From Paenisporosarcina sp. FSL H8-0542 (GTDB lineage Bacteria > Bacillota > Bacilli > Bacillales_A > Planococcaceae): 64,000 bases of DNA. The stretch is from NCBI RefSeq assembly GCF_038632915.1, contig NZ_CP152050.1:3471501-3535500 (forward strand), written 5' to 3'. Positions 657-43,380 of the stretch are shown piece after piece. The notes beneath the pieces were generated by a model. The model did not search any database and had not been told where the DNA came from. It saw only the letters and a program-made list of their open reading frames with translations. The position numbers and the translations under genes were made by a program. Each line of letters opens with the position of its first letter. The first letter of the stretch is position 1.

Positions 657-687
657 TTCAACTAACCTGCCCCGTTAGTTTAATAAG
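657..687. repeat. Dispersed palindrome, copy R1
   Basis: Arms ACTAAC and GTTAGT surround the core CTGCCCC. It lies between two convergent genes and could act as a bidirectional terminator. It is the same family as copies near 1235, 1684/3451, 5714, 11827, 12167, 12228, 18502 and 19510. Confidence 0.8.
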
Positions 688-1234: not shown

Positions 1235-1266
1235 TCGAACTAACCTGCCCCGTTAGTTGAATAACG
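1235..1266. repeat. Dispersed palindrome, copy R2
   Basis: Near-perfect copy with CTAACCTGCCCCGTTAG in the middle. It lies directly after the stop codon of the minus-strand gene 1282-1638, where it could work as that gene's terminator. Confidence 0.8.
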
Positions 1267-1638: not shown

Positions 1639-1694
1639 CCTCTCCTCCTCTTTTTCTTTACTAACAAAACTGCAACTTCTTATTGAACTAACCT

Positions 1695-2064
1695 CCCTCT
1701 ATAAACATTGATGTATCAACGGTTTACATCACTTCGTGATGTGAGGAAAAATATTTTTGACGGTTTCAATAAACATAGATTTGAATATATAGTTTTTATT
1801 ACCAACTTAAGAGTACGCTTCGCTAAAACTAATGGAAATCATTAGCTTTTCTTTGCCATTATGTGATGCACAATGGATCTCTGCGAAACTTATGATGACG
1901 GACCCTCCCATGTCTCTTAGCGTCAGTGCGCTTACATTCCTTCGTTTGGTCTATTCATAAGGCAGAGGCCTGCTAAGCTGCCCCGGGGACTCATGGTCTT
2001 AGTTTAGTTATGTTGCTGGCTTCTCCGTGTCATCCTTCTTGTCATAAATCGATCATCGAAATGT
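1695..2064 (-). ncRNA. Candidate bridge RNA region of the IS110 element
   Basis: This noncoding stretch lies 3' of the transposase, the position described for the bridge RNA of IS1111-type members of the family. At 1973-1986 it contains CTAAGCTGCCCCGG, matching the interrupted target CTAACCTGCCCCGT at 12 of 14 positions, followed at about 1999-2012 by a stretch resembling the right arm of the target. Short self-complementary segments (GGCAG/CTGCC) lie close by. Known biology: IS110 transposases are guided by a structured RNA with loops pairing to target and donor. That this segment is that RNA is inference; no expression or fold was calculated. Confidence 0.4.
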
Positions 2065-3342
2065 TTACGCTGCCTCTGAGAGGCAGTAAAGATCCTTCAT
2101 CATATACTGCTCATTAAAATGGACTTTCTTTTTACATATGCCATGTAATACTTTCAGTAATTTACCGCACAAGACCACCATTGATTGCTTACCCCGTAAG
2201 GGATTTTGTTTGCGTGTTGTGTAGTATTCATGAAGCTGTTTAAACGCCGCGTTATGACGTATGAGTGGAACTATTACTTTGAAGAGGATATATCTGAGTT
2301 TCTTTCGCCCTCTTTTCGAGATATGTTTTTGTCCCTTATGTTGACCAGACGAGTTTTCACGTAGTGTTAATCCCGCTAGTTTGATAAGTTGGCGTGGATT
2401 TTCATAAAGTGAAAAGCTCCCTACTTCAGAAAGTAAATCAACAATCGTCGCATCTCCTAAACCAGGAACGGAACTGAGTAACTCATATTCCATTGTTGTT
2501 TGTGCCATTTCGGCTAATTGATTATTTACAGAGGCAATTTCGGTTTCTAATAAGCGATACTGACGTAGGAGCGTGGCGATTTCATGTCGGGCCATCTTTT
2601 CTCCTTCTTTCAGGCCGATTGAGTTAGTCGAAGCTTCAATGAGAAGCTTTGCTTTCGGCAACTGTGGCGTTCTCATACCCTCTACCTCACGGTATAGAAA
2701 AACCAACTCCTCAGCTGTTTTCCCTTCAATATCCTGTGGAAATGGAGTCATTTCCAATGCCGCCAACGCCATCTTTCCAAAAGACGGAAAGACTTGAGTA
2801 AACTCTGGAAAATAGCGATCAAGCCAACGGACGATTCGATTTTTAATACTCGCTAAATCTTCCGTTAACTTTGAACGGAGAGTAGATCCGATACGAAGTT
2901 CAGCTTCTACCTCTTTTAACAAACGTGGATAACTAAAACGGCCATCCTTCAATAAGCGTGCGATGACCAACGCATCTTTTTTGTCGTTCTTTGTTTGTAA
3001 ATTATCGTCCAGTTCCTTCGAACGTTTGACGTGCATTGGATTTACCATGACGAGTGGAATGCCATAGTTACCTAAGAAATAAGCCAAGTTCATCCAATAG
3101 TGGCCTGTAGGCTCAATTCCAACGATAACGTCTGTTTTCTTAGCTTCCTTCATGGTTTGACGAATCTTTTCATACAAACTTTCAAAGCCTTCTTTTGATT
3201 GATTTACTGCAAAGGATTTTTCAATCACACGCCCTCGTTCATCGACAAAGCACGCATAATGAACACGCTTGGCAATATCCATACCGACAACGAGTGTATT
3301 TTCAGTCACTTGATTAATTTTTTCATTGCATTTAAACTGCAT
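2065..3342 (-). CDS. IS110-family transposase (DEDD recombinase)
   Basis: A 425-residue protein, normal length for the family. The N-terminal RuvC-like domain shows GMDIAKRVHYACF (first Asp), GIEPTGHYW (Glu) and NDKKDA (Asp residues), the DEDD catalytic set. The C-terminal half carries the Tnp20-type domain with SVPGLGDATIVDLL, a helix-hairpin-helix-like stretch, and the nucleophilic Ser region around LTLRENSSGQHKG followed by ISKRGRKKLR. The start at 3342 is preceded by AGGAGG at about 8 bases. The frame is intact, so the element may still be active. The enzyme would act with a bridge RNA to insert DNA without the usual terminal repeats. Confidence 0.95.
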   Translation of the reverse strand: MQFKCNEKINQVTENTLVVGMDIAKRVHYACFVDERGRVIEKSFAVNQSKEGFESLYEKIRQTMKEAKKTDVIVGIEPTGHYWMNLAYFLGNYGIPLVMVNPMHVKRSKELDDNLQTKNDKKDALVIARLLKDGRFSYPRLLKEVEAELRIGSTLRSKLTEDLASIKNRIVRWLDRYFPEFTQVFPSFGKMALAALEMTPFPQDIEGKTAEELVFLYREVEGMRTPQLPKAKLLIEASTNSIGLKEGEKMARHEIATLLRQYRLLETEIASVNNQLAEMAQTTMEYELLSSVPGLGDATIVDLLSEVGSFSLYENPRQLIKLAGLTLRENSSGQHKGQKHISKRGRKKLRYILFKVIVPLIRHNAAFKQLHEYYTTRKQNPLRGKQSMVVLCGKLLKVLHGICKKKVHFNEQYMMKDLYCLSEAA

Positions 3343-3450
3343 AGAGAAGTCCTCCTAGTTAGCTGATGGGTCAATGGTCGTTGACACTCACATCATACTA
3401 GAGGGCTTTTTTTCTTTCAAGATGGCACAAATCCTTCAAACAGGAATGCT

Positions 3451-3470
3451 GCCCCGTTAGTACAATAAGA
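3451..3470. repeat. Dispersed palindrome, right half of interrupted copy R3
   Basis: GCCCCGTTAGTACAATAAG continues the left half TTGAACTAACCT at 1683-1694. The two halves are separated by the IS110 element. A further right-arm-like piece, CAGTTAGTTGAAGAAG, follows at about 3483. Confidence 0.7.
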
Positions 3471-5713: not shown

Positions 5714-5740
5714 TTCAACTATCCTGCCCCGTTAGTTGAA
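5714..5740. repeat. Dispersed palindrome, copy R4
   Basis: TTCAACTA and TAGTTGAA arms around TCCTGCCCCGT. It lies upstream of the monooxygenase gene. The 5740-5950 stretch beyond it shows no gene. Confidence 0.8.
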
Positions 5741-11826: not shown

Positions 11827-11854
11827 CTTCAACTAAAGCACCCGTTAGTTCAAC
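11827..11854. repeat. Dispersed palindrome, copy R5 (variant core)
   Basis: TTCAACTAA and TTAGTTCAA arms with core AGCACCCG in place of CTGCCCCG. It lies between two convergent genes. Confidence 0.7.
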
Positions 11855-12227: not shown

Positions 12228-12260
12228 TCTTTAACTAAAGCACCCGTTAGTAGAATAAGA
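12228..12260. repeat. Dispersed palindrome, copy R7 (variant core)
   Basis: AACTAAAGCACCCGTTAGT, the same variant core as copy R5, only about 60 bases from copy R6. Confidence 0.7.
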
Positions 12261-14477: not shown

Positions 14478-17400
14478 ATGAGAAGAAAATTTCCGTACAA
14501 GGTATTTGCAACGACGACTTTGGCTGCGATGTTGTTAACGACAACAGTGTTTGCGGAAGGGCCACAGAATAATTCGGTTTCCTCTCCAAATATAGAGGAG
14601 ATTGCGAAGCAAGGATTGCAAATTTTCCAAGATGAACAAAACCAAGCTGCTATAGAAGCAGCTGATAGGCTTGGATACAAGAATTTGAAAAAAGACGGCT
14701 TAGCTAAACCGTATAAGCCGGATGAAAAGGTGCGCTTGATTGTGGAGGTAGAGCAGCCAATAATATTGGAAAAATCTGTCCAAAACAAAAAGACGAAGTA
14801 TAAACAAAAACAAGATCAAGTAATTGCACAAATTTCTAAGGAAAATTCAGCTTCTAAAGTAAATCATCGATTCTATGAAAGCTTTAACGGCTTTAGTATG
14901 GAAACGGAGTTTAGTAATGTAAAAGAAATTCAGGCAACTCCAGGTGTTATAAACGTGCATATCGCAAGGACGTTCCAACCATCTATGGGGGCAAGCAAAG
15001 AATTGGTACAAGCACAAAAGGTATGGGAACAATACGGATATGAAGGAGAAGGATTGCTTGTTGCGATTGTCGACTCCGGACTAGACTATACTCATAAAGA
15101 TATGACGTTGACAAAAAAAGGAAAGGAAAAAGAGAAGTGGACGCAAGAGAACATTCAAGGGGAACTCGCAGAAACAGCAGTAAACGAAGTATGGTACAGC
15201 GACAAAGTTCCGACAGGTTATGACTGGGCTGATAAAGATACAGACGTAATTCCACGCGGTCAATATGGAAGTTCACATGGTATGCATGTTGCAGGAACTG
15301 TAGGAGCTAATGGTGATGAAGCAAACGATGGAGTACAAGGGGTTGCACCAGGTGTGCAGTTGTTGGCAGAAAAAGTTTTCTCCGATAATGGGGGTGGAGC
15401 TTATGAAGATGATATCATCGCAGGTATCGAGCACGCGGTAACATTAAGCGCCGATGTTATCAACATGAGCTTAGGTTCTGACGCGGGATTTGTTGGCGAA
15501 GAGAACGACCCAATTCAAAAAGCAATTCGTCAAGCAACTGAACAAGGCACGCTAGTTGTTGTAGCAGGTGGTAACGCTGCTTACAGCACAAAAAATAATC
15601 TCTTGCCTTCTTCCGAAAAACCATATGCTGAGAATCCGGATATTGGAACAGTTGGAGAACCAGGAGTAAGCCCCTATGCGTTATCTGTTGCTTCCTATGA
15701 AAACACAAAAATGCATAAAACCACGCTTGCAGAAGAAAACGGTTTACAGCTTCCGTACCAAGACCAAACGCAATTTAATTTTAAACTCTCCAGAGTACTA
15801 ACACCTACTGAGAGCTATGAAATGGTGTATGTAGGGGAAGGAAGAAAGGCAGACTTCGCTGGAAAAGACGTCGCAGGCAAAATAGTAGTTGCGAAACCGC
15901 AAGTACCCTATGCATTTTATTCTTATATTCAAGTGGAAGCAAAGAAGAATGGTGCGAAAGCAGTTATTCTAGTACCGCCAACCACAATGGCAGATTTCCC
16001 ATATCTAAATTTCAGCTATCTATCTACTCCAGCTGCTACAACAAGTAAGGTTGCAGGAGATGCGTTAATCACAAAGCTTACAAGTGGTCAAATTGTTAAG
16101 ATGAATATGACAAAGGGTATTTGGCTTGATAATCCTGATAATAATACCATTTCCGACTTTTCATCTGTCGGAACTCCGCATACGTTAGACTTTAAACCAG
16201 AGCTTTCAGCACCGGGTGGCAACATTTATTCAACTGTTGCGGGCAATGAATATGAGGTTATGAGTGGAACATCCATGGCAACTCCTCATGTTGCAGGTGG
16301 TTCGGCATTGTTAATGCAAGCATTATATGAAAAAGGATTATCTCATTCAAAGAATACAGCACTAACGGCAAAAATCGCATTGATGAATACAGCGCAGGTA
16401 GTACAAGATCCGCGCACAAATAATGAAGTACCGTACTCACCGCGTGTACAAGGATCCGGCTTAATGAAAATTCAAAATGCAATTAAAACACCTGTTATTG
16501 TGACAAGCAAGGATACTCCGTTAGAGCAAGCCGGAGCTGTAGCGTTAAAAGAGATTAATAAAAAAGGGACGAACTTCAAGTTGAATGTGGAAGCCTTAAA
16601 AAATGTAGATGTAAAAGATTTAGAATACATGATCTTTGTAGATGTTTTGACGGATGGAAAAGAAACAAAAGAATTTGACTTAGACGAAGACGGGAAATTG
16701 GATTCTAAAGAATATTTAACTTTAACAAGCAAGCATGTAAAAGGTGCTATTTCATCTATAAATGGCGAGAAAGTGACACATACACAAGGTGCGAAATTGA
16801 AGATTAAACCGGGTCAAGAAAAGAACCTAGACGTAAAACTTGTATTACCTGAAAGCTTGGAGGAAGGGACGTTTGTTGAAGGATTTGTTCGCCTAGTGCC
16901 CACAGGCAAAAACAGCAAGGCGGCAGTTCCGTTAACCGTTCCGTATATGGGCTACTATGGAGATTGGGATCAGCCGCAGAACATTGATCCTGTTGCATGG
17001 GATAAAGATGCATTCTTAGGATATACCGTGCTTTGGAACGATGAAGGAGCACAATTCCCGTTGGGATATGACCCGTATACGGGAACCTTTAATATGGACC
17101 GAATTGTCATTTCTCCAAACTTTGTCTTGCCAGGTGTATACCCAACATTTACAGCACTTCGCAACTTAAAGAAGACAGAAATGTACGTGGAGAATGATCA
17201 AGGAAAAATGGTTCAAGACCTAGGCGATTTTAGTGAATATACTGGGAAACCGTGGAAGTTCCGTAAAAATGTTATGGCATACGGTGATTATATGAATAGT
17301 GGTTATTTATGGGACGTAAAAGACCAGGCAGGACAAGCAGTCAAGGATGGCACATACAACTTTGTTATTAAAACAACACTAGATTACCCAAATGCGAAGC

Positions 17401-17987
17401 CACAAGAAGTGAAGCTTCCAATCCGTGTTGATTCTGTTGCCCCAGTTGTATCTGATATTCAAGTGCAGCCAAAAGAAGGACAATATGAAATTTCTTTCAA
17501 GGCAGTGGACAACGAGGGCGGTAGCGGATATAACGCAGCAATCATCTGGTATAACGGTAAGTATGAATCCTTACAGCCGGGACAAACTTCTGTACTAGTA
17601 AAAGAAGAGCCGAAGAGTGTGGTAGTGTTAGGTGCAGACCATGCTTTTAACCACAGCTATACGGTTTGGGGAGATCCTACTTATATTAATGAAGAAATGC
17701 TTGTAAGTTATTTCTCCGTGTATCCAAACAACAACGTAAACACAACCACCCCTGCCCAAATTAATGCGTTTGCCAGTAACCGTGTGAACTGGACAATAAA
17801 CGTTAAAGATGTAAACGGCAAGGTAGTGGACACGATTGTAGCTGAAAATGAGCATGAAATTCACTTGAAATGGACTCCAGAAGCGGATGTTCCAAGCGGT
17901 ACGTATACAGTTTCAGCAGAAGTAGTAAACAAGCAAGGCTTTAAAGTAACGACAAGTCCGCAAACAGTAACTGTATTGCAGCAATAA
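14478..17987 (+). CDS. Secreted subtilisin-like serine protease (S8 family, Vpr/lactocepin-like)
   Basis: An 1169-residue preproprotease. AGGGGGAAGGG precedes the ATG. Residues 1-26 are a signal peptide ending VFA. An I9-type inhibitor propeptide covers about 85-170. The catalytic triad is Asp199 (VDSGLDY), His267 (SSHGMHVAGT) and Ser599 (GTSMATPHVAG), with oxyanion Asn366 (GGNA). A protease-associated domain is inserted at about 435-550. The C-terminal ~550 residues contain fibronectin-like domains and a Ca-like DLDEDGKLDS motif. It should degrade proteins outside the cell. It is a single-gene unit closed by a strong terminator. The 420 bases upstream are AT-rich and without a gene; the promoter must be there but is not obvious. 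Confidence 0.93.
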   Translation: MRRKFPYKVFATTTLAAMLLTTTVFAEGPQNNSVSSPNIEEIAKQGLQIFQDEQNQAAIEAADRLGYKNLKKDGLAKPYKPDEKVRLIVEVEQPIILEKSVQNKKTKYKQKQDQVIAQISKENSASKVNHRFYESFNGFSMETEFSNVKEIQATPGVINVHIARTFQPSMGASKELVQAQKVWEQYGYEGEGLLVAIVDSGLDYTHKDMTLTKKGKEKEKWTQENIQGELAETAVNEVWYSDKVPTGYDWADKDTDVIPRGQYGSSHGMHVAGTVGANGDEANDGVQGVAPGVQLLAEKVFSDNGGGAYEDDIIAGIEHAVTLSADVINMSLGSDAGFVGEENDPIQKAIRQATEQGTLVVVAGGNAAYSTKNNLLPSSEKPYAENPDIGTVGEPGVSPYALSVASYENTKMHKTTLAEENGLQLPYQDQTQFNFKLSRVLTPTESYEMVYVGEGRKADFAGKDVAGKIVVAKPQVPYAFYSYIQVEAKKNGAKAVILVPPTTMADFPYLNFSYLSTPAATTSKVAGDALITKLTSGQIVKMNMTKGIWLDNPDNNTISDFSSVGTPHTLDFKPELSAPGGNIYSTVAGNEYEVMSGTSMATPHVAGGSALLMQALYEKGLSHSKNTALTAKIALMNTAQVVQDPRTNNEVPYSPRVQGSGLMKIQNAIKTPVIVTSKDTPLEQAGAVALKEINKKGTNFKLNVEALKNVDVKDLEYMIFVDVLTDGKETKEFDLDEDGKLDSKEYLTLTSKHVKGAISSINGEKVTHTQGAKLKIKPGQEKNLDVKLVLPESLEEGTFVEGFVRLVPTGKNSKAAVPLTVPYMGYYGDWDQPQNIDPVAWDKDAFLGYTVLWNDEGAQFPLGYDPYTGTFNMDRIVISPNFVLPGVYPTFTALRNLKKTEMYVENDQGKMVQDLGDFSEYTGKPWKFRKNVMAYGDYMNSGYLWDVKDQAGQAVKDGTYNFVIKTTLDYPNAKPQEVKLPIRVDSVAPVVSDIQVQPKEGQYEISFKAVDNEGGSGYNAAIIWYNGKYESLQPGQTSVLVKEEPKSVVVLGADHAFNHSYTVWGDPTYINEEMLVSYFSVYPNNNVNTTTPAQINAFASNRVNWTINVKDVNGKVVDTIVAENEHEIHLKWTPEADVPSGTYTVSAEVVNKQGFKVTTSPQTVTVLQQ

Positions 17988-18501: not shown

Positions 18502-18536
18502 CTTCTTCAACTAAACTGCCCCGTTAGTTGAAGAAG
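18502..18536. repeat. Dispersed palindrome, copy R8 (longest perfect arms)
   Basis: CTTCTTCAACTAA pairs with TTAGTTGAAGAAG around ACTGCCCCG. It lies 45 bases after the stop of the minus-strand phzF-like gene and could terminate it. Confidence 0.85.
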
Positions 18537-18579: not shown

Positions 18580-19374
18580 TTAGATTAATAATTCACCCCA
18601 TAATATCCGTACCGCTGTACCTGCAATGGCAACATCTTTTTCTTTTGGTGTTACGTATAATAACCCACCTCGTTTTGAAAGCTGTTTGCTGACAATACTT
18701 TCTATTGATAACTTTTCACACCAGTAAGGTCCTAATGCACCGTGGGTAGAACCATTTACATGGTCTTCATCAATGCCCTGTGCTGGAGAAAAAAATCTAG
18801 AGACAATATCAATTCCCTCCTCATTAGACATGCTCGTGATACAAACACCACGTACAGGAAACTGTTTCATTGCAGAAAAATCAGGTTCAAAATCTGCAAT
18901 GTATTCTTCGTGACTTAGTTCCACTATATAATCCAAATCTGTTTTCCCTACATATTTCGGTTTCGTACCGAGCCATTCTTCAAGCTCTGAAGGACATTCA
19001 ATCTCTTCTAATTGGTACTTCTTAATTGTTATTTCTACCAGTTCATTACACCATCTTGCTTGCAGAGGACCGCTTAAAGTCTGGAATGTAATAGAAGAAT
19101 CTAAGGGTAAAATCGCTTGTTGCCAAACAATAAAAGCACTGGCTATTGTTCCATGTCCACAAATCGGAATTTCCATCTCTGGAGTAAACCATTTAAGAAA
19201 AAAATCATTCCCCTTTTTTTGGACAAAAGCTGTTGTTGGTACGGGTATCTCCTGAGCAATTTTTTGCATGGTCAACTCAGATATTGTTGAATCTAGTAAA
19301 CATACTGCCGCGGGATTTCCCTTGTAAAGATCTGTAGTAAATGCATTTACGATAAAATACGTGACTCTGTTCAA
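18580..19374 (-). CDS. PhzF-family isomerase-like protein
   Basis: About 264 residues, the usual length of the family. Motifs: YFIVNAFTTDLYKGNPAAV at the start, the catalytic-region Glu in KIAQEIPVPTTAFV, and CGHGTIASAFIVWQQ near residue 75, with the second-half partner ...VNGSTHGALGPYWCEKL. PhzF relatives have two mirrored alpha/beta domains and catalyse isomerisations; outside phenazine clusters their substrate is unknown, and no phenazine genes are present here. TTG at 19374 is preferred as start because AGGTGGGAG lies just upstream; a GTG at 19383 would place the start inside that site. Confidence 0.85.
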   Translation of the reverse strand: MNRVTYFIVNAFTTDLYKGNPAAVCLLDSTISELTMQKIAQEIPVPTTAFVQKKGNDFFLKWFTPEMEIPICGHGTIASAFIVWQQAILPLDSSITFQTLSGPLQARWCNELVEITIKKYQLEEIECPSELEEWLGTKPKYVGKTDLDYIVELSHEEYIADFEPDFSAMKQFPVRGVCITSMSNEEGIDIVSRFFSPAQGIDEDHVNGSTHGALGPYWCEKLSIESIVSKQLSKRGGLLYVTPKEKDVAIAGTAVRILWGELLI

Positions 19375-19484
19375 CTCTCCCACCTCATTCTTCGTTACTA
19401 ATATAAATTTATTTTCATTAACCTACCCCGATAGCCATCCATGCAACAAAAAACACTGTGCCATAGAGCCCAACCGTTAGTAAC

Positions 19485-43199: not shown

Positions 43200-43221
43200 A
43201 TAACATTCTCACTAGTTCGTA

Positions 43222-43363
43222 TTTCTCTCTCATAACGCTTACGGAGTTAGCTGTCGGGTTTGGGCTAAAGAGTAGCCCTACCTACAATAGTAGGATTCAC
43301 CCCAAGCGGCAAAGAGAAGCCACAAATAATGGGTTCCCCGTTCCAAATGGATTAAGCGATTTA
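43222..43363 (-). ncRNA. c-di-AMP riboswitch (ydaO-yuaA class)
   Basis: The minus strand carries the conserved blocks of this class in order: ATCGCTTAATC, GGGGAACCC, TTGGGGTGAATCC, a GGTAGGGCTAC stem, AACCCGACAGCTAACTCCG and TAAGCG, which pairs with the first block, then GAGAGAG. High c-di-AMP lets the downstream terminator form and so shuts off kimA. A TATAAT (43381-43386, minus) lies at the right distance upstream to start this leader. Confidence 0.93.
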
Positions 43364-43380
43364 GAAATATGAAACTGAAG

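What the first reader, a model, noticed from the sequence alone, without database searches (positions are those of the whole stretch)
1683..3470. IS110-family element sits inside a dispersed palindrome and carries a look-alike of its target in its own noncoding end
Left flank TTGAACTAACCT and right flank GCCCCGTTAGTACAATAAG rejoin into an ordinary copy of the local palindrome, so the target is recognisable. The element's 370-base noncoding side, 3' of an intact DEDD transposase, contains CTAAGCTGCCCCGG (1973-1986), 12 of 14 matches to the target core, and a right-arm-like stretch just after. Known: IS110 transposases use a bridge RNA with target- and donor-specific loops and often choose REP-like repeats. 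Inferred: this element encodes a bridge RNA tuned to this palindrome, and the repeat family acts as its landing site.
Basis: partly seen in the sequence, partly recalled or inferred. Interest (0 to 1): 0.78.

Follow-up and report, generated by a model that had tools for sequence, protein, structure and literature searches.

The report
RNA-guided jumping element in repeat palindromes
A small mobile DNA element in a bacterium very probably carries its own guide RNA that steers it into one family of repeated palindromes, and in its relatives the guide changes along with the target; the mechanism is known from related elements, but this is a clear natural series of it.

Summary
The element (window 1693-3450) is an IS110-family insertion sequence. 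Its genome has seven letter-identical copies, all in one orientation at the same CT of one dispersed palindrome. A same-species genome with only a 67-residue transposase fragment has the uninterrupted palindrome at 5 of 7 of these sites. The 3' noncoding side encodes a conserved two-loop RNA with changes on both sides in 15 of 35 pairs. The guide heptamer in the target loop follows the target flank in relatives: 69 of 93 copies exact, own mean 6.71 of 7 against 4.52 shuffled. The donor loop follows the element ends in a 45%-identical relative. Relatives use the same RNA scaffold with other guides at Shine-Dalgarno sites, a second repeat family and a TTTATGAG repeat. In genome G240, 3 of 5 copies sit at guide-like sites that are not palindromes, which speaks for linear pairing. 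Bridge RNAs and REP targeting are known; this is a new member with a good natural reprogramming series. No RNA or transposition data.

The parts
1693..3450 (-). IS110-family element including the core CT at both junctions (1693-1694 and 3449-3450; either CT can be counted as target)
   Evidence: 7 letter-identical copies in the genome; empty sites in a same-species genome
1683..1694 (+). left half of the interrupted palindrome, TTGAACTAAC + core CT
3451..3469 (+). right half of the interrupted palindrome, GCCCCGTTAGTACAATAAG
2065..3342 (-). transposase, 425 aa, DEDD_Tnp_IS110 (PF01548) + Transposase_20 (PF02371); NF033542 IS110 family RNA-guided transposase, 230.6 bits over cut-off 140
   Evidence: PDB relatives IS621 (5.1e-11) and ISCro4 (1.9e-9) transposases
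3392..3420 (-). sigma-70-type promoter-like site for the transposase inside the left end: TTGAAA-17-TATGAT
   Evidence: 10 of 12 matches; the scan finds 6 sites against 4.6 in shuffles, so weak by itself
3347..3356 (-). likely ribosome binding site of the transposase, AGGAGGACTT
   Evidence: sequence
1875..2035 (-). conserved part of the bridge RNA / seekRNA gene in the 3' noncoding side
   Evidence: alignment of 20 sequences; compensatory pairs
2001..2009 (-). target loop, 5' guide (RNA AACUAAACU; 8 of 9 to target arm + core AACTAACCT on the + strand)
   Evidence: covariation between target classes but not within the palindrome class
1988..1998 (-). hairpin GAC..GUC that separates the two target guides; two of its three pairs change together in 3 relatives
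   Evidence: helix 3
1978..1986 (-). target loop, 3' guide (RNA CCGGGGCAG; pairs with CTGCCCCG of the target including core CT)
   Evidence: heptamer covaries with the target flank
1935..1943 (-). donor loop, 5' guide (RNA GAAGGAAUG; GGAAUG is complementary to left-end CATTCC)
   Evidence: becomes GGACTG where the end is CAGTCC (L069/L078)
1920..1931 (-). hairpin GCGC..GACGC between the two donor guides
   Evidence: helix 10
1903..1911 (-). donor loop, 3' guide (RNA AUGGGAGGG; GGGAG equals the last three bases of right end GAGGG + core AG)
   Evidence: becomes GAGAG where the right end is GAGAG (L069/L078)
3443..3448 (-). donor sequence at the left end, CATTCC next to core AG
1695..1699 (-). 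donor sequence at the right end, GAGGG next to core AG
1825..1845 (-). A/U-rich hairpin just 3' of the conserved RNA (possible RNA end)
   Evidence: fold -8.7 kcal/mol, z -3.86; not called as a terminator
1237..1260 (+). uninterrupted copy of the palindrome, between ORFs 680-1201 and 1282-1638
659..682 (+). uninterrupted copy of the palindrome, between ORFs 210-614 and 680-1201 (overlaps the latter's stop codon)
5716..5739 (+). uninterrupted copy of the palindrome
18508..18531 (+). uninterrupted copy of the palindrome, between ORFs 14478-17987 and 18580-19383

Best explanation
An IS110-family insertion sequence moves as a circle joined at core AG (CT on the + strand). Its transposase is loaded with a bridge RNA made from the 3' noncoding side. 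The RNA has two internal loops. The target loop carries AACUAAACU on its 5' side and CCGGGGCAG on its 3' side; these pair with the two strands of CTAACCTGCCCCG in a dispersed palindrome. The donor loop carries GGAAUG and GGGAG, which pair with the element's own two ends. Strand exchange at the CT inserts the element in one orientation without duplicating the target. There are about 150 such palindromes, and the four uninterrupted ones in the window lie between genes, so they can serve as plentiful, mostly harmless landing sites. Over evolution the guides change on a conserved scaffold, which redirects the element to other repeated sites. Shown here: boundaries, single target and orientation, no duplication, RNA scaffold conservation, guide-target and guide-donor covariation. 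Inferred from the family: transcription of the RNA, its binding to the transposase, the circle, and strand exchange.
For: 7 of 7 copies in one genome at the same base and orientation of the palindrome. Empty site in a same-species genome at 5 of 7 loci; three alignments cover most of both flanks and two end about 20 nt past the junction. RNA: 98.0% of cells paired, 15 pairs with double changes against 4.4 in shuffles, covariation 0.198 against 0.093 (0 of 500 shuffles) and at most 0.082 when slid. Guide heptamer against target heptamer: 130 of 133 positions in 19 elements, 0 of 200,000 shuffles as good; in the larger set of 44 guide sets and 93 copies, own mean 6.71 against 4.52, p 1e-5, and also within the palindrome class alone (6.92 against 6.02, p 1e-5). 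In genome G194, the four copies with guide GGAGCAG sit at GGAGCAG palindromes and the two with guide GGGGCAG at GGGGCAG palindromes, 6 of 6. Donor guides change with both ends in L069/L078.
Against: No transcript, RNA-protein or transposition data. Folding the single sequence gives nothing more stable than shuffles (z -0.50 for the noncoding side; z +1.63 for the core). One of five structure measures is weak: further pair types, reached by 29 of 500 shuffles. The 5' guide does not covary within the palindrome class (own 5.94, shuffled 6.2, p 0.88), where the arms hardly vary; its support comes from comparison between classes. In all 7 own-genome copies the 5' guide has one mismatch next to the core. 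L048 has guide GCAGCAG at a GGAGCAG site. In the Shine-Dalgarno class only 22 of 44 copies match all 7 bases. Donor covariation rests on one genome (L069 and L078 are both from G056); L071 has left end ATATTCC with an unchanged GGAATG guide, and L070's right end reads GAGGGAAG, so the rule is not without exceptions.
Confidence: 0.94

Rival explanations
1. The transposase alone recognises the palindrome as a hairpin or cruciform; the noncoding look-alike is incidental.
For: The target is palindromic, and 7 of 7 own-genome copies lie in it. Structure-specific targeting of REPs was an older idea for such elements (recalled).
Against: A second repeat family that starts with the same CTAACGGG but has another loop has 116 places in this genome, and none of the 7 copies lies in it. 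In G240, 3 of 5 copies are at sites that are not palindromes: two match the guide heptamer exactly, one at 6 of 7. Relatives at Shine-Dalgarno sites show a different kind of target. The guide heptamer covaries with the target.
Confidence: 0.03
2. The look-alike is a scar or capture of target sequence from earlier insertions, without guiding function.
For: The guide equals the flank in most copies, which capture would also give.
Against: The match lies about 280 bases inside the element at a fixed position of a conserved RNA scaffold and comes in two pieces of opposite strand on the two sides of a conserved hairpin; donor guides match the element ends in the same arrangement. In G194 copies with the same guide sit at different palindromes with the same loop.
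Confidence: 0.02
3. Ordinary site preference plus copy spread by homologous recombination between palindromes: the copies did not each arise by guided transposition.
For: The 7 elements are letter-identical, which gene conversion between copies could also keep.
Against: The wider flanks differ between the 7 loci, and a same-species genome has near-identical flanks with an intact palindrome at three of them, as expected from recent insertion into separate pre-existing sites.
Confidence: 0.01

Closest known systems
ISPa11 (IS1111 group) and other REP-targeting insertion sequences (ISPsy8, ISPpu9, ISPpu10, ISRm19, ISRm22; PMC1525189, abstract seen; families of the latter five not checked here)
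   Same: Insertion into a dispersed extragenic palindrome; for ISPa11 a seekRNA from the 3' noncoding region was shown experimentally (PMC11187229, first 3 of 9 parts and passages seen)
   Different: Other palindromes; IS1111 members have subterminal inverted repeats, not found here at 10 nt or longer
IS621 (bridge RNA; PMC11208160, passages seen; PDB 8wt6)
   Same: Transposase relative (5.1e-11), core CT, REP target, two-loop RNA whose loops pair with target and donor
   Different: In the IS110 group with IS621 the RNA lies in the left end, upstream of the gene; here it is downstream and the gene runs in the opposite direction relative to core CT; transposase 425 aa here, 328 residues in the IS621 PDB chain
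IS1111-type elements with seekRNA (ISEc11, ISKpn4; PMC11187229)
   Same: RNA downstream of the gene; complement of the top strand precedes the bottom-strand match
   Different: No long subterminal inverted repeats found here; PMC11187229 mentions a subgroup of IS110-type elements with a downstream noncoding region, which this resembles
IS900 (targets translation initiation signals; Doran et al. 1997, only its title seen in the reference list of PMC8141618)
   Same: Targeting of translation starts, as in the Shine-Dalgarno lineages related to this element
   Different: Mycobacterial; no guide RNA is mentioned in the passages of PMC8141618 that I saw. The element of this window targets a palindrome instead

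Membership tests
IS110 family (broad) | DEDD RuvC-like N-terminal domain and PF02371 C-terminal domain | tested here: met
   PF01548 126.6 bits (cut-off 29), PF02371 74 bits (cut-off 21.3); NF033542 over cut-off. Single catalytic residues were not checked.
IS110 family (broad) | One specific target and orientation | tested here: met
   7 of 7 copies
IS110 family (broad) | No target duplication beyond the shared core | tested here: met
   empty-site comparison at 5 of 7 sites; CT at both junctions
IS110 family (broad) | Structured noncoding RNA whose two loops match target and donor | tested here: met
   (in silico only)
IS110 family (broad) | Circular intermediate; RNA bound to the transposase | not testable with these tools
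   needs experiment
IS1111 group | Subterminal inverted repeats of about 11-13 bp | tested here: not met
   no inverted pair joining the two ends among the pairs of 10 nt or longer
IS1111 group | Long noncoding region downstream of the gene | tested here: met
   370 nt at 1695-2064
IS1111 group | Order of guides: top-strand complement, then bottom-strand match | tested here: met
IS110 group (narrow) | RNA upstream of the gene | tested here: not met
   the RNA found is downstream
REP-targeting insertion sequence | Copies lie in a dispersed extragenic palindrome | tested here: met
   that palindromes lie between genes was checked only for the four uninterrupted ones in the window

The most novel reading that the evidence does not exclude
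One lineage of RNA-guided elements in this bacterial family has switched, through guide changes on a conserved RNA scaffold, from Shine-Dalgarno sites (the commonest class in the tree) to at least three other repeated features: this palindrome family, a second GC-rich repeat family, and a TTTATGAG repeat. Within the palindrome clade the guide keeps step with loop variants of the host's repeats, because an element must match its own flanks to leave and match free copies to land. Host repeat families and transposon guides would then evolve together, and RNA guidance would explain why some IS110 elements, IS900 included, sit at translation starts.
Probability: 0.5. Interest if true: 0.62.

Novelty: new member of a known kind. 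Interest (0 to 1): 0.47.

Why it matters
It gives a natural, replicated test of bridge-RNA guiding in Bacillales: the same scaffold with matching guides at several unrelated repeated targets, and with two guides side by side in one genome. It offers 425-aa recombinases with a downstream RNA as candidates for programmable insertion, and it suggests an RNA explanation for IS110 elements that sit at Shine-Dalgarno sites.

Tried and rejected
Single-sequence folding did not support the RNA (z -0.50 and +1.63); only the alignment did. The Rfam gathering scan listed no family at the element. RAYT/Y1 transposase as the source of the palindromes: no PF01797 match in this genome. The whole 14-mer as guide: rejected, since its CTTAGC half belongs to the scaffold. 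Requirement for the palindrome fold: made unlikely by G240. The claim that both guides covary within the palindrome class: rejected for the 5' guide (p 0.88). Preference for GGGGCAG palindromes in this genome is only suggestive: 56 of 90 have it, so 7 of 7 has chance 0.036. Host repeat loops against guides in other genomes: the guide of L045 (GCGGCAG) is only the third commonest loop of its host (7 of 50), and in the host of L046-L048 the commonest is GCAGCAG (9 of 30), the guide of L048 alone; so the guide tracks the occupied site more clearly than the host's commonest loop. Literature: searches on Shine-Dalgarno targets and IS110 or bridge RNA and on REP targets or the repeat listed no paper whose title or shown abstract describes this element or RNA-guided Shine-Dalgarno targeting; most listed papers were not opened. 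ISfinder was not available, so the element may already have a name there.

Rows and drops: one search used 93 copies in 44 guide sets. Four sets were entered by hand with one copy each (G234 1 of 3, G266 1 of 4, the L123 group 1 of 4, the L148/L149 group 1 of 2). Two unused G266 copies miss the guide heptamer by one base each (L193, L195), so of the 16 copies of the 'other' classes fetched are exact. Copies with a missing flank (L067, L071, L072, L084, L087) and L070 were not; L070, L071 and L072 were. The sixth G194 copy (L211) came. In one search the 16 copies of G234, G263, G177, G266 and G246 are counted under non-REP (60), which leaves 44 Shine-Dalgarno copies; these are not the same 44 as. 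The tree left out L072 (too short).

Full report
What was checked. The window holds an insertion sequence at 1693-3450 whose transposase gene runs on the minus strand (3342-2065, 425 aa). Pfam and NCBIfam place it in the IS110 family over the curated cut-offs, and the two solved structures matched are the IS621 and ISCro4 transposases.

Copies and target. The host genome is one 3,629,232-base contig, unnamed; relatives of the element come from named Sporosarcina, Viridibacillus, Psychrobacillus, Solibacillus, Lysinibacillus, Domibacillus and other records. It holds seven full copies. Between the flanks the seven are letter-identical, and every one sits between ...CTAA(C/T)CT and GCCCC(G/A)T(T/C)AGT in the same orientation, with CT at both junctions. 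The palindrome occurs at 147 places with up to 3 mismatches (control 0). Of 90 places that match ACTAANNNNNCAGNTTAGT exactly, 56 carry the loop GGGGCAG.

Empty sites. A same-species genome, G123, has no full transposase: with the window's transposase as query its one match at E <= 1e-5 is a 67-residue fragment at 76%. Seven left flanks of 200 nt were searched in it. Five found their locus, and there the palindrome is uninterrupted and the two flanks of the filled site rejoin without gain or loss at CT|GCCCC. For three sites (L001, L003, L007) the junction-spanning alignment covers 631 to 800 of the 800 joined bases; for two (L002, L005) similarity stops about 20 nt past the junction. The flanks of L004 and L006 gave no convincing locus (for L004 one 104-nt match at 79%).

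The RNA. In relatives the 3' noncoding side contains a block of about 160 nt that is conserved across the 20 aligned sequences. A consensus structure of 35 pairs has 15 with changes on both sides; 98.0% of cells pair; no shuffle of 500 and no slid control reaches its covariation score, though 29 of 500 shuffles reach its number of pair types. It contains two internal loops, each with a guide on either side of a small hairpin. Single-sequence folding does not stand out from shuffles, so the case rests on covariation.

Guide against target. In the target loop the 3' guide ends in a heptamer that equals the target heptamer including the core: GGGGCAG (window), GGTGCAG (L043, L047), GAAGCAG (L044), GCGGCAG (L045), GGAGCAG (L046), each at a target with that same heptamer. 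Over 19 elements 130 of 133 positions match and 16 of 19 are exact; none of 200,000 shuffles did as well. With 80 more loci fetched, 44 guide sets and 93 copies give a mean of 6.71 of 7 against 4.52 shuffled; 69 of 93 are exact: 36 of 38 in the palindrome class, 22 of 44 at Shine-Dalgarno sites, 11 of 11 in the other classes (drops and duplicates are told in Tried and rejected; with the dropped copies of the other classes it is 14 of 16). The 5' guide follows the other half-site across classes (4.58 against 3.48, p 1e-5), weakly within the Shine-Dalgarno and other classes (p 0.043 and 0.034), and not within the palindrome class (p 0.88), where the arm hardly varies. Genome G194 is a natural control: all six copies listed were read, four with guide GGAGCAG lie at GGAGCAG palindromes and two with guide GGGGCAG at GGGGCAG palindromes.

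Guide against donor. The donor loop carries GGAAUG and GGGAG, matching left end CATTCC and right end GAGGG plus core AG. In L069/L078 (one genome, transposase 45% identical) the ends are CAGTCC and GAGAG, and the RNA reads GGACUG and GAGAG. Both donor guides have moved with the ends. L071 (ATATTCC with an unchanged guide) and L070 (right end GAGGGAAG) are not explained by this rule.

Linear pairing, not the hairpin. In G240 the guide is UGGGGCAG; 2 of 5 copies are in palindromes, 2 of 5 at GGGGCAG and 1 of 5 at GGAGCAG outside palindromes. A second repeat family in the host, starting with the same CTAACGGG, has 116 places and none of the seven copies.

Other target classes. Relatives with guides such as AAAGGAG sit at AAAGGAG-like sites just upstream of start codons. 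Of the 44 Shine-Dalgarno-class copies among the loci have a start codon 4-14 nt past the core that opens at least 40 codons, against 0 of 20 palindrome-class copies and 280 of 4000 random positions. The element's right end itself ends in GAGGGAG, so it would bring a Shine-Dalgarno-like sequence to the interrupted gene (inference). G234, G177 and G266 sit in another GC-rich repeat with matching guides; G263 sits in a TTTATGAGCGGAA repeat with guide CUUAUGAG. In a transposase tree with one row for each of 47 guide sets the palindrome class is one clade (SH-aLRT 99), and the tree needs 4 changes of class against 17.3 in shuffles; Shine-Dalgarno targets occur in the outgroup and several basal branches, so that class may be the older one (quick method, and the tool warns of long branches).

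Geometry. Read on the + strand with core CT, the 5' guide has the sense of the left arm and the 3' guide is complementary to the right side, as described for IS621 (PMC11208160, passages). Read in gene orientation the order is that reported for IS1111 elements (PMC11187229, first three parts). The element combines a downstream RNA with no long subterminal inverted repeats, so it fits neither the narrow IS110 group nor IS1111; PMC11187229 mentions a downstream subgroup without naming members in the text that I saw.

Verdict. The kind of system is known: bridge RNA or seekRNA, with REP targets for ISPa11 and IS621. What this adds is a Bacillales lineage in which the same scaffold has been naturally reprogrammed among several repeated targets, with guides that follow the loop variant of the palindrome occupied. 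All of it is sequence evidence; expression, RNA binding and transposition are inferred.

Noticed in passing
G000 whole genome; window 659, 1237, 5716, 18508: The palindromes are oriented with replication: 88 of 90 (37 of 38 and 51 of 52 by genome half, dnaA at 331) have the GGGGCAG strand leading, taking the genome midpoint as terminus. All seven transposase genes are co-directional with the fork on the same assumption.
   Followed up: partly
window 11828-11848 and 12230-12250; 116 places in G000: A second palindrome-like repeat, CTAACGGGTGCTTTA(C/G)TT(C/G)AA, lies 42-60 bases from the first in the same orientation in at least 14 places of the listed (capped) hits, like a two-part BIME. No Y1/RAYT transposase was found in the genome, so what spreads these repeats is unknown.
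   Followed up: partly
L065-L073 and 44 of the loci L122-L201: Related lineages insert at Shine-Dalgarno sites with a matching guide and carry GAGGGAG at their own right end, which may keep the downstream gene translated.
   Followed up: partly
G000:C1:2550867-2551095 (L008) and 2121662-2121791; G123:C1:1418480-1418680 (L210): Degenerate fragments of older related elements (76-82% identity); the one at 2121662 runs to the end of the query, i.e. into the palindrome flank.
   Followed up: no
window 43220-43368, minus strand: c-di-AMP riboswitch (RF00379, 103 bits).
   Followed up: no
window 1683-3470, all 7 copies: All seven own-genome copies are at palindromes with G or A, never T, next to the core AG, although 26 of 90 palindromes have T there and T would pair fully with the 5' guide; chance 0.09, so possibly nothing.
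   Followed up: no
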